Below, piece after piece: positions 310 to 3,803 of a stretch of DNA of 5,910 bases. The DNA lies in assembly GCA_014380505.1 (NCBI GenBank), contig JACMJT010000235.1, positions 1 to 5,910 on the forward strand. The letters are read 5' to 3'. The notes under the pieces were generated by a model. That model was not told the origin of the DNA. It was given only the letters and a program-made list of their open reading frames with translations, and ran no database searches. Within the stretch, counting starts at the first letter, position 1. Every line of letters begins with the position of its first letter. The stretch is from Hyphomicrobiales bacterium (GTDB lineage Bacteria; Pseudomonadota; Alphaproteobacteria; Rhizobiales; Aestuariivirgaceae). Made by a program: the position numbers and the translations under genes.

Positions 310-333
310 GGCTTTGACAAGTTCTCTCATTTT

Positions 334-395
334 CGTCATTCCGGCGAAAGCCGGAATCTATTTTTACATGGACCCCGGCTTCCGCCGGGGTGACG
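334..395. repeat. Two-hairpin palindromic intergenic repeat (62 bp)
   Basis: The element is framed by CGTC at 334-337 and GACG at 392-395. Inside are two perfect 8-bp stems with 4-nt loops: 338-357 (ATTCCGGC, loop GAAA, GCCGGAAT) and 372-391 (ACCCCGGC, loop TTCC, GCCGGGGT). A 14-nt T-rich spacer (358-371) joins them. The two halves are also imperfect inverted copies of each other, so the whole forms one larger palindrome. The first hairpin has a GNRA loop (GAAA) on the plus strand, and the second has one (GGAA) on the minus strand. It resembles the CGTCATTCC-type dispersed repeats of proteobacterial genomes. It fills about half of the gap between the divergent sfsA and cinA-type genes. Confidence 0.8.
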
Positions 396-426
396 GAACA
401 GAAGAAGAGAGATATCACACCTTTAG

Positions 427-443: not shown

Positions 444-1205
444 ATGGCAGCATCCGTTCCCACCGCCGCCGTCCTTCTGATCGGCGATGAAATCCTTTCG
501 GGCCGCACCAAGGACAGCAATCTAGGATACATCGCCGATTATCTGACCGTGCTCGGCATCGACCTCAAGGAGGCTCGCGCAGTTCCCGATATCGAGGCGG
601 AGATCGCCTCGGCGGTGAATGCGTTGAGGGCGCGCTATACCTATGTGTTCACCACCGGCGGCATCGGCCCCACCCATGACGACATCACCGCCGATTCGGT
701 GGCGAAGGCATTCGGCGTTCCGATCGGCCACGATCCCAAGGCGGTTGAAATCCTCTCGGCTTACTTCAAGGGGATCGACCGCGAACCCAACGAGGCGCGC
801 ATGCGCATGGCGCGAATTCCCAAAGGCGCCATCCTCATCGAGAATCCAGTGTCGTTGGCGCCGGGGTTCCAGATGGAGAATGTGTTCGTGATGGCGGGCG
901 TGCCGAAGATCATGCAGGCAATGATGGATGTGATCGCTCCCCGGCTGACGAAGGGCGTTCCCATGCAATCGCGGGGCGTGGAATTCCTCGGCGGCGAGGG
1001 CGATATCGCCATACCGCTGGCGGAGATTCAGAACCGCTACCCCACGGTTGCCATCGGGTCCTATCCGTTCCAGTCGCCCGAGGGCTTCGCCACCAACCTC
1101 GTGCTCCGCTCGCGCGATCTTCCGGCGCTCGATGCGGCACTCGCCGACGTCAGGGCTTTGGCCACGCAACTAACCGGGCAAGGCAAGGCGCGGGGGTGGT
1201 CGTGA
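444..1205 (+). CDS. CinA/MoCF-type molybdopterin-binding domain protein (competence/damage-inducible protein A-like)
   Basis: A 253-residue protein consisting of one MoCF-biosynthesis (MogA/MoaB-like) domain. Visible motifs are LIGDEILSGRTKDSN at residues 11-26, where members bind nucleotide or pterin, and the signature TTGGIGPTHDD at 70-80. Further on come PGFQMENVFVMAGVP (140-154) and a C-terminal extension with SYPFQSPEG (206-214). The C-terminal PncC-like nicotinamide-nucleotide deamidase domain of full-length CinA (about 400 residues) is absent, as is usual for the short alphaproteobacterial version. Function is therefore uncertain: E. coli MogA-type adenylylation of molybdopterin or a CinA-type pyrophosphatase role are both family possibilities. 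The start is taken at the ATG at 444, which has AAAAAGG upstream. A GTG at 390 would add 18 residues (MTEQKKRDITPLEKGFVQ), which do not resemble the domain, and lies inside a repeat. The stop is TGA at 1203-1205. The gene is convergent with the kinase gene. Confidence 0.9.
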   Translation: MAASVPTAAVLLIGDEILSGRTKDSNLGYIADYLTVLGIDLKEARAVPDIEAEIASAVNALRARYTYVFTTGGIGPTHDDITADSVAKAFGVPIGHDPKAVEILSAYFKGIDREPNEARMRMARIPKGAILIENPVSLAPGFQMENVFVMAGVPKIMQAMMDVIAPRLTKGVPMQSRGVEFLGGEGDIAIPLAEIQNRYPTVAIGSYPFQSPEGFATNLVLRSRDLPALDAALADVRALATQLTGQGKARGWS

Positions 1206-1256
1206 GGTTTAAGCATTGTGAATCGTCGAATATCTCATCATGCCCGGGCTCGACCC

Positions 1257-1406
1257 ACTGCTCTCCGGTTAAGGAAGCCATGACAAGGCCAGGACCAACT
1301 GTCCTCTCCCCGCTCACGCGGGGCGAGGACAACTAAGTGCTGATATTTTTCTTAAGCACCGGAAGAGTGGGGATGTTGATCACTCGCGCTTCAACCGGAC
1401 GGCAGT
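1257..1406. mobile_element. MITE-like non-autonomous insertion (150 bp) with terminal inverted repeats and target duplication
   Basis: The left end reads ACTGCTCTCCGGTT (1257-1270). The reverse complement of the right end (1406 back to 1393) reads ACTGCCGTCCGGTT, so 12 of 14 positions match. Immediately outside lie direct repeats GGGCTCGACCC (1246-1256) and GCGCTCGACCC (1407-1417): 11 bp with one mismatch, the inner 9 bp (GCTCGACCC) identical. The element carries no coding region. Its interior holds a strong GC-rich hairpin (1301-1330) and a T-run (1345-1349). The combination of target duplication, inverted ends and disruption of an otherwise perfect palindrome shows an insertion. The transposase family that moved it is unknown; a target duplication of 9-11 bp is compatible with, for example, IS4-type elements, but this is not evidence of that family. 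Confidence 0.7.
1301..1330. terminator. GC-rich hairpin inside the insertion, possible terminator for the cinA-type gene
   Basis: Arms GTCCTCTCCCCGC (1301-1313) and GCGGGGCGAGGAC (1318-1330) pair over 13 positions with one T-C mismatch around a TCAC loop. No T-run follows directly on the plus strand; the nearest is ATTTTTCTT about 14 nt downstream. It could stop transcripts arriving from either convergent gene, but it may be only a structural part of the mobile element. Confidence 0.4.
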
Positions 1407-1440
1407 GCGCTCGACCCGGGCATTCTCTCTAAGGAAAAGG

Positions 1441-1463
1441 ATGCCCGCATCAAGTGCGGGCAT
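1441..1463 (-). terminator. Possible terminator downstream of the histidine kinase gene (right hairpin of the split repeat)
   Basis: A perfect 9-bp stem (ATGCCCGCA / TGCGGGCAT, 5-nt loop) begins 27 nt after the kinase stop codon. Read on the minus strand, it is followed by CCTTTTCCTT. This is a weak intrinsic-terminator shape contributed by the repeat. Confidence 0.4.
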
Positions 1464-1490
1464 GATGAGATTTCGGGGAGTACTGCTTTG

Positions 1491-3803
1491 CTACGCCGCC
1501 AGAGCGCGCTTTACCTTTTCAGTCAAATCATTGCGAGTGAAGGGCTTGTTGACGAGGTCGATGGCGTTGGGCAGGTCTTCCTGCATTTGGCGGAGCGAAC
1601 CCGGCGCATAGCCGGACATGAAGAGGACCTTGAGTTCGGGCCTGACGCTGAGCGCCTTCTGGGCCATCTCGGGGCCGTTCATGCCGCCGGCCATGATCAC
1701 GTCCGACAGCACGAGGTCGATATCGGGGCGTTCTTCTATTGCCTTCAGGCCCTCGGCGCCGCTGGCGGCCACGAGCACGTCGAAGCCCATATCCTCGATC
1801 ATGGCGGCGGCCACATCGCGAACCGAGGGATTGTCCTCGACCACCAGCACCATGGGCTTGCGCCGAAGCTCTGGCGTGGCAAGTTTCCACATGACGGTCG
1901 AAAGCGCTTCCTCCGGTGTTTCGGCGGGTGCGGCCGCCTTAAGGCGCGGCAGGAACATCCTCATGGTGGTGCCGTGACCCACTTCCGAATAGATCTTGAT
2001 ATGGCCGCCCGACTGCTTGGCAAAACCATAGATCATCGAAAGCCCGAGGCCGGAACCTGCCTCCGGACCCTTAGTTGTGAAGAAGGGTTGAAACACCTTT
2101 TCGAGATTCTCGGAGGCGATGCCGCAGCCCGTGTCGGTCACGGCGATTTCCACATATTCGCCGGGCTGGACGTCCTCCATATCCTTGCACCAGGCGGCAT
2201 CGAGCACCCGGTTGGCGGTTTCGATGGTGAGCTTGCCGCCCTTGGGCAGCATGGCATCGCGCGCATTGATGCAAAGATTGAGGATCGCCGTCTCCAGCAT
2301 CGTCGAGTCCGCCTTGATCGGCCAAATCTCGCTGCCTGGATGAATTTCAAGGCTGACGGCGGCGCCAACGGCGTGGTTTAGAATATCACGCATGCGGCCG
2401 ACGAGGCCGTTCACTTCGATATTCTTGTTCTGCAATGTCTGCTGGCGCGAGAAGGCGAGCATGCGCTTGGTCAGCTCCGAACCCCGCTCGGCGGCATCGG
2501 CGGCGGCGCGGATACGCTTCAGCGCGCGCTCGTCGTTCTTCACCAACTGTTCGACGAGCTGCAAATTGCCGATCACCACCATGAGGAGATTGTTGAAGTC
2601 GTGGGCGACGCCTCCGGTAAGCTGGCCCACTGCTTCCATCTTCTGGGCCTGGAGATATTTGCGTTCGAGAGTCTTGCGCTCGGTGGCGCATTGGCAGGTG
2701 CCGAAGATGGTTTCAACGTCCCCCTGGCTGTTACGATCCGCTTCGATCTTGACCTCGAAATAATTGAGATCGCCGGCCACCAGCGTTTTGTAGGCAATCT
2801 CGAAGCCCGGGCTGTTGTGGCCGAGTTTGGCGAGTTCGACGGCCTCGCGGAAACGGTCGATATCCTGGGGCTCGATCATCTTCTCGAACATGGCGAGATT
2901 GGGCTGGACGATGGCATCGGCCATGCCGATCAGTGCTATCATCTCGTTCGACAGGCGGTTGGCGCCGGTTTCGACATTGATGGTGAAACTGCCGAGGCGC
3001 GCGGCCTGCTGGGAGCGCCGAAGTATGCGTTCGGACGCCTGCATCTTCTCGAGCGCCACCATCTGATCGCCGATGTTGCGTGATAGGCCCACGCATTTCA
3101 CCGGCTTGCCGTCGATGGGATTGCGGATGATGCCGGCGATCGATTCAATCCAGATGTATGCGCCTGATTTCTGTTTCACCCGGTAGCGCGTCTGGAACAT
3201 GTCGGAGCCGAAGGGCGCGGTTCTGATCTGGCCGTCGAGGGTTTTTTCGCGGTCGTCGGGGTGGACGAAATCGTTGAATGTATTGAAATTGAGTTCGGCG
3301 CTGCCGCGTTCGAAATCGAGAAGATCGAACATTTCGGGGGAATTATAGGTGACGCGCGTGCGATAATCGTAGTCCCACGCCGCATAACCGCCGGAGCGCA
3401 GCGCCAGGCTCAGGCGGCGCTCGTTGTGGAAGGCTTCTTCCGCCTGTTCGATGCTGGCGTGCTGGCCTATGAGAACCATGTACTGGTCGGGGCCGTCGTT
3501 CCAGGTCTGGGGCGAGAATTTGATGGTCCGCATCGTGCCCAGCGGCGGGGCGTAGGAGACTTCGATTTTCTGAACCGGGCCTTGCGGGGTTTCGTCCTCG
3601 ACATGGCGGGCGGACAAGGGGCCAGCACCCGCCCTTGCCAGGGCGCGGCCCAGGATCTCGTCGCGGGTGGCATTCCATTTGCGGAGGACAGCACTCGTGG
3701 CCTCGACGACCTGGGCTTCCGGCAGCCTCACGGCGAACATTTCAACGTTGGCCGTCTCGAACGCCCTGGTCAGGTCGGCGATGACGCCCGTGGCCGCAAT
3801 CAT
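1491..3803 (-). CDS. Multi-PAS hybrid sensor histidine kinase with C-terminal receiver domain
   Basis: A 770-residue protein without hydrophobic membrane spans, so probably a cytoplasmic sensor. Order: a degenerate PAS-like region (about 1-120); a PAS/PAC segment (about 130-245, ending [11 protein letters not shown]…[10 protein letters not shown]); another PAS-like segment (about 262-378); HisKA with H401 in [11 protein letters not shown] (384-455); and a HATPase domain (about 495-620) with N-box N509/N513 ([10 protein letters not shown]), G1 DTGCGI (557-562), FQPFF (571-575) and G2 GSGLGLSM (583-590). The receiver (651-768) has acidic E656/D657, phospho-acceptor D701 in DLVLSD, S730 in MSGY and K753 in NKPF. 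All catalytic residues are present, including the D402-x-x-N405 pattern linked to phosphatase activity. The expected path is His401 to Asp701, then an unseen histidine phosphotransfer protein. The layout resembles CckA-like HK-receiver proteins, but CckA has membrane helices and this does not. No partner regulator lies in the window. The ATG at 3803 has GGAG 8 nt upstream. The signal sensed is unknown. Confidence 0.93.

What the first reader, a model, noticed from the sequence alone, without database searches (positions are those of the whole stretch)
1232..1471. Nested insertion: a 150-bp MITE-like element inside the loop/stem of a two-hairpin repeat
The sequence shows an 11-bp direct repeat with one mismatch (GGGCTCGACCC at 1246-1256, GCGCTCGACCC at 1407-1417). 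These copies flank 150 bp whose ends are 12/14 inverted repeats (ACTGCTCTCCGGTT / ACTGCCGTCCGGTT). Removing the 150 bp and one direct copy recreates a complete palindrome with two perfect 9-bp hairpins and 8-bp outer arms. Three independent signals (target duplication, terminal inverted repeats, restored host palindrome) agree on the same junctions. The palindrome is therefore older and was the target. Insertion into a hairpin could reflect target preference for structured or AT/GC-symmetric DNA.
Basis: seen in the sequence. Interest (0 to 1): 0.7.

Follow-up and report, generated by a model that had tools for sequence, protein, structure and literature searches.

The report
Mini-transposon inside a DNA hairpin repeat
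A 152-base, gene-less transposon landed exactly in the tip of a common bacterial hairpin repeat, as full-size relatives of it do in related bacteria, so it is a clear example of a largely known habit rather than a new kind of element.

Summary
Between a CinA-like gene and a convergent histidine-kinase gene lies a two-hairpin REP (head-to-head dimer) whose first hairpin is split at its apex by a non-coding element with inverted ends and a direct repeat. Relatives move the borders by one base: the element is 1256-1407 (152 bp, TIR 13/15) and the target duplication is 9 bp (1247-1255 / 1408-1416, 8/9), not 11. The same ends with 8-9-bp duplications bound 1.27-kb IS4-family elements (ISRel1-type transposase) and shorter gene-less or deleted elements in other Hyphomicrobiales; in a sample of 16 such end pairs, 14 restore a hairpin palindrome (3.3% of random sites do). 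Two relatives with the same gene pair have almost no spacer. REP-apex targeting by an IS4-family IS (ISRm22) was published in 2006. New here are the gene-less member, the ISRel1-type group as REP-apex users, and a possible triple nest (a third hairpin repeat inside the element). No second copy of this interior was found, and the window's own genome is not held.

The parts
444..1205 (+). CinA-like / MoCF_biosynth-domain gene (left neighbour; the frame is open from 390, start taken at 444)
   Evidence: PF00994 E 5.5e-32 on the open frame 390-1205; best relatives 72-79% identical
1491..3803 (-). hybrid PAS/HisKA/HATPase/receiver histidine kinase (right neighbour, convergent)
   Evidence: Pfam PF00512, PF02518, PF00072, PF08447
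1232..1239 (.). left outer arm of the REP dimer (ATCTCATC)
   Evidence: repeat I2; rejoined
1240..1255 (.). left part of REP hairpin 1, including the left target duplication
   Evidence: copies of this repeat in relatives
1247..1255 (.). 9-bp target duplication, left copy GGCTCGACC
1256..1407 (.). 152-bp non-autonomous ISRel1-type (IS4-family) element, MITE-like
   Evidence: ends, duplication and target shared with elements in relatives
1256..1270 (+). left terminal inverted repeat CACTGCTCTCCGGTT
   Evidence: 14/15 to the CACTGCTGTCCGGTT of full elements
1393..1407 (-). right terminal inverted repeat CACTGCCGTCCGGTT (read on -)
   Evidence: 14/15 to the CACTGCTGTCCGGTT of full elements
1301..1330 (.). 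inner hairpin GTCCTCTCCCCGC/GCGGGGCGAGGAC, a separate repeat inside the element, flanked by AACT direct repeats (1297-1300, 1331-1334)
   Evidence: repeat I7; the hairpin recurs in 5 of 69 family genomes at E <= 1e-5 and in G003; AACT repeats; reading as a nested insertion is inference
1408..1416 (.). 9-bp target duplication, right copy CGCTCGACC (one mismatch to the left copy)
1408..1423 (.). right part of REP hairpin 1
1441..1463 (.). REP hairpin 2 (intact), terminator-like on the - strand downstream of the kinase gene
   Evidence: repeat I11
1464..1471 (.). right outer arm of the REP dimer (GATGAGAT)
   Evidence: repeat I2

Best explanation
1256-1407 is a non-autonomous (MITE-like) element whose ends are those of ISRel1-type insertion sequences of the IS4 family. 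A transposase of that type, supplied in trans by a full copy elsewhere, inserted it by cut-and-paste into the apex of hairpin 1 of a pre-existing REP head-to-head dimer, with a 9-bp stagger that duplicated the loop and inner stem bases (GGCTCGACC). Shown here: the anatomy; the same ends, duplication length and target in other genomes; transposase genes between such ends. Inferred: that an enzyme of this type put this copy there, and that the target is chosen through the symmetry of the hairpin rather than one fixed sequence. Likely consequence (inferred): the REP hairpin on the CinA side is split and can no longer fold locally, while hairpin 2 still looks like a terminator for the kinase gene.
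For: Unique flush TIR+duplication solution, 0 of 600 shuffles. A two-hairpin REP of the same design is intact in G002 and nearly so in G037, and the hairpin core occurs at <=1 mismatch in 22 of 69 family genomes, up to 87 places; the reversed-pattern control is 0 in all 69. The same end joined to the same REP bases recurs in G061. The end pattern occurs in 18 of 397 order genomes; the reversed-pattern control has single hits in 2 of the 397. Of 31 distinct end pairs in the fetched loci, 16 have an 8-9-bp duplication with <=1 mismatch, of sizes 152-619 and 1269-1274 bp; 14 of these 16 restore a palindrome (>=6 of 10 arm pairs) against 3.3% of random 29-mers. Leaving out the window and two elements found with a query that contained REP bases, it is 11 of 13. 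All six full-size elements among the 16 encode the transposase, 55-100% identical to that of L151 apart from split matches (52-71%) in L161. R. etli IE4771 carries a 267-bp element and a full 1274-bp IS in the two hairpins of one REP dimer. Transposases: PF01609+PF14294, NCBIfam IS4_1, YREK and DDE spacing. Two elements of 160 and 161 bp that resemble each other lie in two REPs of G049.
Against: No other copy of the 152-bp interior was found: the 150-bp insert in 69 family genomes, its right half in 69 family and 397 order genomes, the 240-bp region in the plasmid and phage collections (weak hits only, and scored candidates were capped in some genomes). Against the left end of the G061 IS the window element matches at the 15-base end only, apart from a 7-base chance match. 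No autonomous partner could be sought in the host, whose genome is not held. The two relatives nearest by CinA, G010 and G001, have no match to the REP hairpin core and none to the end pattern at <=1 mismatch. Both window ends differ by one base from the common end, and the duplication has one mismatch. 12 of 31 end pairs have no matching duplication. Because many targets are alike, wrongly paired flanks also match in 108 of 756 combinations, so the duplication alone is weaker evidence than it looks.
Confidence: 0.9

Rival explanations
1. A full 1.27-kb ISRel1-type IS inserted into the REP and later lost its interior by deletion in place, so that the 152 bp is a dead remnant and never moved as such. 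(This shares with the best explanation that the insert is a non-autonomous ISRel1-type element in a REP apex; it differs only in how it became short.)
For: No second copy of the interior was found. Internal deletion does make short forms: L198 (619 bp) keeps pieces of the transposase gene, and the first 67 bases of L176 (read on its other strand) and L192 (168 and 186 bp, G320) are 85% identical to the left end of the G061 IS.
Against: The window interior shows no clear match to the IS interiors in hand beyond the ends. Short elements recur as similar copies in G049 and in G320, so short forms do move.
Confidence: 0.3
2. No transposition: recombination among REP units joined unrelated sequence between two REP halves and the end symmetry is secondary.
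For: REPs are numerous in some relatives, and 12 of 31 end pairs lack a matching duplication, several with flanks that look like halves of different REPs.
Against: The inserted ends match those of transposase-bearing IS at 14/15 on both sides, and the break is at the same base of the REP as in other genomes.
Confidence: 0.03
3. The symmetry is chance in GC-rich, palindrome-rich DNA.
For: Short inverted repeats are common in the region.
Against: 0 of 600 dinucleotide shuffles give a comparable arrangement, and the same arrangement recurs in other genomes.
Confidence: 0.01

Closest known systems
ISRel1-type IS4-family elements (R. etli; 'IS4-like element ISRel1 family transposase', e.g. NC_007762)
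   Same: CACTGCTGTCCGGTT-type ends, 9-bp duplication GGCTTGACC/GGTCAAGCC, REP-apex target in R. etli IE4771; transposase 92% identical to those that records name ISRel1 family
   Different: 1.27 kb with a transposase gene; the window element is 152 bp, has no gene, and each of its ends has one base changed. For the copy in p42a (NC_007762) I saw only a right end, in sequence that does not look like a REP, and no complete end pair.
ISRm22 / ISRm16-type IS4 elements of Sinorhizobium meliloti
   Same: IS4 family; all ISRm22 copies of strain 1021 in REPs with the insertion point at the palindromy axis (PMC1525189, passages). The two pSymB copies seen here have 9-bp duplications inside a hairpin; transposase about 40% identical.
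   Different: Ends CAGGGCTGTCCGGGG, another hairpin (CTCCCCGC/GCGGGGAG type). PMC1525189 gives a 6-bp repeat. That the pSymB copy is ISRm22 is my inference; records call its transposase family ISRm16.
IS231A of Bacillus thuringiensis
   Same: IS4 family with insertion specificity (PMC2266710 passage); the recalled target consensus GGG(N)5CCC is exactly the GGGCTCGACCC seen here
   Different: The consensus is recalled, not read in any call; IS231 ends begin CAT and duplications are 10-12 bp (PMC2266710 table).
CGTC-tagged REP super-family (PMC3733652)
   Same: 9-bp stem, 5-nt loop, A-T first pairs, head-to-head dimers, mainly alphaproteobacteria (passages): fits the host REP
   Different: The window copy has CATC in place of CGTC. 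The paper reports only a few fortuitous associations of CGTC repeats with transposase genes, whereas the IS4-type elements sampled here mostly sit in such hairpins.

Membership tests
IS4 family, IS4Sa-like ends (the parent IS) | YREK signature Y(2)R(3)E(6)K and D(60-110)D(100-150)E in a single-orf transposase | tested here: met
   YREK matches in all four transposases examined (L150, L151, L222, L223); candidate D122-D188-E293 in L151 fits the spacing; definition from PMC2266710 passages; NCBIfam NF033592 IS4 for the two scanned
IS4 family, IS4Sa-like ends (the parent IS) | ends CA------T, duplication 8-10 bp, size 1150-1750 bp | tested here: met
   CACTGCTGT ends; 8-9 bp; 1269-1274 bp against the table in PMC2266710. 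Subgroup membership by clustering was not tested.
Non-autonomous ISRel1-type element / MITE (the window element) | same terminal inverted repeats as the autonomous element | tested here: met
   14/15 at each end
Non-autonomous ISRel1-type element / MITE (the window element) | target duplication of the same length | tested here: met
   9 bp, 8/9 identical
Non-autonomous ISRel1-type element / MITE (the window element) | no transposase gene | tested here: met
   152 bp, and all six frames hold at least one stop
Non-autonomous ISRel1-type element / MITE (the window element) | several copies of the same element in a genome | tested here: inconclusive
   own genome not held; no copy found in relatives
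Non-autonomous ISRel1-type element / MITE (the window element) | moved in trans by the transposase | not testable with these tools
   needs an experiment
REP of the CGTC super-family (the target) | 8-9-bp stem with A-T first pairs, 4-5-nt loop, head-to-head dimer | tested here: met
   against the passages
REP of the CGTC super-family (the target) | terminal CGTC tag (TGTC or CCTC variants) | tested here: not met
   the tag is CATC on both sides; so it is called CGTC-like only
REP of the CGTC super-family (the target) | many copies per genome | tested here: inconclusive
   true of some relatives (87 places of the hairpin core in G005, 25 in G002) but none in G001 and G010; host genome not held

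The most novel reading that the evidence does not exclude
ISRel1-type IS4 transposases choose the apex of hairpin-forming palindromes by two-fold symmetry or cruciform shape rather than by a fixed sequence (targets seen: GGCTTGACC, GCCTTCGC, GCCTGCGC, GACGTGTTC, and in the 40%-identical S. meliloti type CCGCCTGCG). REPs thus act as genome-wide landing pads for a whole guild of IS and MITEs, which in turn carry other hairpin repeats, building nested palindromes. This would make the CGTC REPs, thought to lack a transposase partner, regular prey of one transposase group.
Probability: 0.4. Interest if true: 0.55.

Novelty: new member of a known kind. Interest (0 to 1): 0.35.

Why it matters
It turns a visual impression into a named, testable case: the parent group, exact ends, duplication length and target are fixed by independent copies. 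It extends REP-apex targeting, described for ISRm22, to the ISRel1-type group and to gene-less elements, and it qualifies the published statement that CGTC-type REPs have only fortuitous links with transposase genes. It also offers a compact system to ask whether an IS4 transposase reads hairpin shape or sequence.

Tried and rejected
Rejected: 11-bp duplication and ends at 1257/1406 (relatives show CACTG ends and 8-9 bp). Rejected: chance symmetry. The idea of an IS231-like parent (recalled GGG(N)5CCC target) was dropped after the ends and duplications fitted IS4Sa-like ISRel1-type elements better. Rfam gave only weak mir-205 hits at the unrelated hairpins 323-406, below the gathering score. 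The plasmid and phage collections have no match to 1232-1471. Matches of the insert in G003, G018, G038, G055, G056 and G058 are only the inner hairpin, a separate repeat. Two weak hits of the right half in 397 genomes (E 2.8e-4 and 5.8e-4) and one in 69 (E 0.0046) were judged chance. The literature searches that ran listed no paper that I recognised as being on MITEs of ISRel1/ISRm22-type elements in REPs; only open-licence PMC papers are held, most listed papers were seen as titles and starts of abstracts, and four were opened: PMC2266710 (one section and passages), PMC1525189, PMC3733652 and PMC10132070 (passages). The ISRel1 hits in PMC10132070 that I saw are ISRel10, another family.

Dropped rows: 3 of 31 end pairs lie too near a contig end to test; 12 pairs without a duplication were not used in the palindrome count; two of the 16 counted (both L214) share a left end. 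The listed order-wide places were fetched only in part (G245 has 69 ends, of which I fetched the surroundings of a few), so the 16 are a sample. The pattern contained REP bases, so that its ten G061 ends lie next to REP bases is partly by construction; the pattern contained only one base before the end, and gave 11 exact ends in G061, the eleventh also in a REP-like flank.

Full report
Setting. The window looks like a Hyphomicrobiales alphaproteobacterium: the nearest relatives of its CinA-like protein are 79% (G010), 77-78% (G001), 74% (G002) and 72% (Taklimakanibacter lacteus) identical. Its own genome is not held. The finding lies in the 285-bp spacer 1206-1490 between a CinA-like/MoCF gene (+) and a hybrid histidine kinase gene (-), which converge.

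Observation. Rejoining 1255 to 1417 gives one 79-base palindromic unit: outer arms of 8 bp around two perfect 9-bp stems with 5-nt loops. A systematic scan of the spacer for an element of 60-279 bp with flush inverted ends (>=13 of 15) and a 9-bp direct repeat (<=1 mismatch) finds only 1256-1407, and 0 of 600 dinucleotide shuffles contain any such arrangement. The spacer as single-stranded DNA folds far better than shuffles (z -7.5), and so does the insert as RNA (z -5.6); for such palindromes this is expected.

The host palindrome is a REP dimer. A two-hairpin unit of the same plan, with TTCATCAT...ATGATGAA borders, is intact in G002, and one with a changed stem base is in G037. The hairpin core GCCCGGGCTYGACCCGGGC occurs, at <=1 mismatch, in 22 of 69 genomes of the family: 87 places in G005, 25 in G002, 17 in G037, but none in G001 and G010, the two nearest by CinA; the reversed-pattern control gives 0 in all 69. 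Stem and loop sizes and the head-to-head dimer fit the CGTC REP super-family of PMC3733652 (passages), but the tag here is CATC, so I call it CGTC-like.

Empty sites. Two relatives keep the same CinA-kinase pair. In G010 the two stop codons are 4 bp apart and in G001 they overlap. The whole 285-bp spacer is thus absent there. This fits REP and element being additions (or lost in both), but it is not the ideal empty REP. In the other loci compared the kinase was not found next to the CinA gene.

The same ends elsewhere. A search for REP halves broken at this base in 69 family genomes gave 4 places in 3 genomes; two, in G061, run on into ACTGCTGTCCGGTT, the window's end with one change, while the other two are point variants of unbroken REPs. 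G061 has 11 exact ends of this type; ten were read next to REP loop sequence in one or the other orientation (that pattern contained REP bases) and the eleventh has a REP-like flank too. The order-wide pattern CCACTGCYSTCCGGTT occurs in 18 of 397 genomes; the reversed-pattern control has single hits in 2. In the family at one mismatch it is found in 18 of 69 genomes, but there the control is hit about as often outside the genomes with exact matches (G046, G049, G053, G061), so most of those single hits are chance.

Complete elements. In the fetched loci there are 128 distinct ends and 31 distinct end pairs. Three are too near contig ends, 16 have a duplication (8, 9 or 10 bp allowed) with at most one mismatch, 12 do not. 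The 16 include full elements of 1269, 1270, 1271, 1271, 1273 and 1274 bp and short ones of 152 (the window), 156, 160, 161, 168, 186, 267, 317, 591 and 619 bp; the 156- and 591-bp pairs share a left end. Duplications are 9 bp in 13 and 8 bp in 3. With one duplication removed, 14 of 16 restore a palindrome with at least 6 of 10 arm bases paired, against 3.3% of about 100,000 random 29-mers. Without the window and without the two R. etli elements, which were found with a query that contained REP bases, it is 11 of 13; the exceptions are L219 and L167, the latter by eye a REP with unlike arms. A caution: flanks paired wrongly among elements also match within one mismatch in 108 of 756 combinations, because the targets are alike. 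The weight of the case lies in ends plus target plus duplication together.

The parent. In R. etli IE4771 (plasmid) one REP dimer holds a 267-bp gene-less element in one hairpin and a 1274-bp element with an 'IS4 family transposase' gene in the other. The transposase (381 aa) matches PF01609 and PF14294 and NCBIfam IS4, has the YREK signature and DDE spacing of the IS4 family, and is 92% identical to proteins that records call 'IS4-like element ISRel1 family transposase'. All six full-size elements encode a relative of it: 100, 73, 67, 58 and 55% over most of its length, and in L161 three pieces of 52-71%. Ends (CA------T), duplication length and size fit the IS4Sa row of the IS4-family table in PMC2266710 (one section and passages). 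The 40%-identical S. meliloti type has ends CAGGGCTGTCCGGGG and, in the two copies seen, 9-bp duplications in the loop of another hairpin, CTCCCCGC..GCGGGGAG. PMC1525189 (passages) reported ISRm22, IS4 family, in REPs at the palindromy axis, all copies of strain 1021. REP-apex targeting in this family is therefore known; the window adds a gene-less member of the related ISRel1-type group.

Short forms. G049 has two elements of 160 and 161 bp, similar over their length, in two different REPs. G320 has two related ones of 168 and 186 bp, one end of which (67 bases) is 85% identical to the IS end in G061, and the 619-bp L198 keeps pieces of the transposase gene. So short forms arise by internal deletion and also move. 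For the window's own interior no second copy was found, so a remnant of a full IS decayed in place remains possible.

A third layer. Inside the element, 1301-1330 is a near-perfect hairpin of a separate repeat type that is common in some other genomes (49 matches of the 240-bp query in G003, all at this hairpin; 5 of 69 family genomes at E <= 1e-5), in the copies read mostly as part of larger multi-hairpin units. Here it stands alone between AACT direct repeats. A nested insertion is the natural reading but rests on 4 bp. It is of the kind that the two S. meliloti relatives use as their target.

Function. The element codes for nothing recognisable. Hairpin 2 is followed on the kinase strand by a T-rich tail and scores as terminator-like (2 sites found in the region against 0.5 expected). 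Splitting hairpin 1 would remove the equivalent structure on the CinA side; this is inference. I see no sign of a selected function: the simplest account is a harmless landing place between convergent genes.

Verdict. The finding is true and now named; its kind is known. Interest is moderate: a clean, multiply supported case that extends REP-apex targeting to ISRel1-type elements and their gene-less derivatives and makes the symmetry-versus-sequence question testable.

Noticed in passing
window 323-406: Another two-hairpin palindromic repeat (GTCATTCCGGCGAAAGCCGGAATC ... GACCCCGGCTTCCGCCGGGGTGAC) between the sfsA-like and CinA-like genes; it gives sub-threshold mir-205 hits on both strands in Rfam.
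   Followed up: no
window 1297-1334: A third hairpin repeat flanked by AACT direct repeats lies inside the 152-bp element; the same hairpin is frequent in some relatives as part of larger multi-hairpin units.
   Followed up: partly
L151 4011-5616: R. etli IE4771: a 267-bp element and a full ISRel1-type IS occupy the two hairpins of the same REP dimer next to kdp genes.
   Followed up: partly
L150 4011-5375: Rhizobium sp. ACO-34A: an IS of this type whose two flanks are REP halves in opposite orientation (no direct repeat), as if two neighbouring insertions had recombined.
   Followed up: no
L212 1804-2120: A 317-bp element with these ends that itself contains REP-like hairpins, so nesting goes both ways.
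   Followed up: no
G245: One order-level genome with 69 ends of this element type, a strong local expansion.
   Followed up: no
L223 1086-2384, L224 1085-2384: S. meliloti pSymB IS4-type elements have 9-bp duplications at these two places, whereas PMC1525189 gives six base pairs for ISRm22.
   Followed up: no
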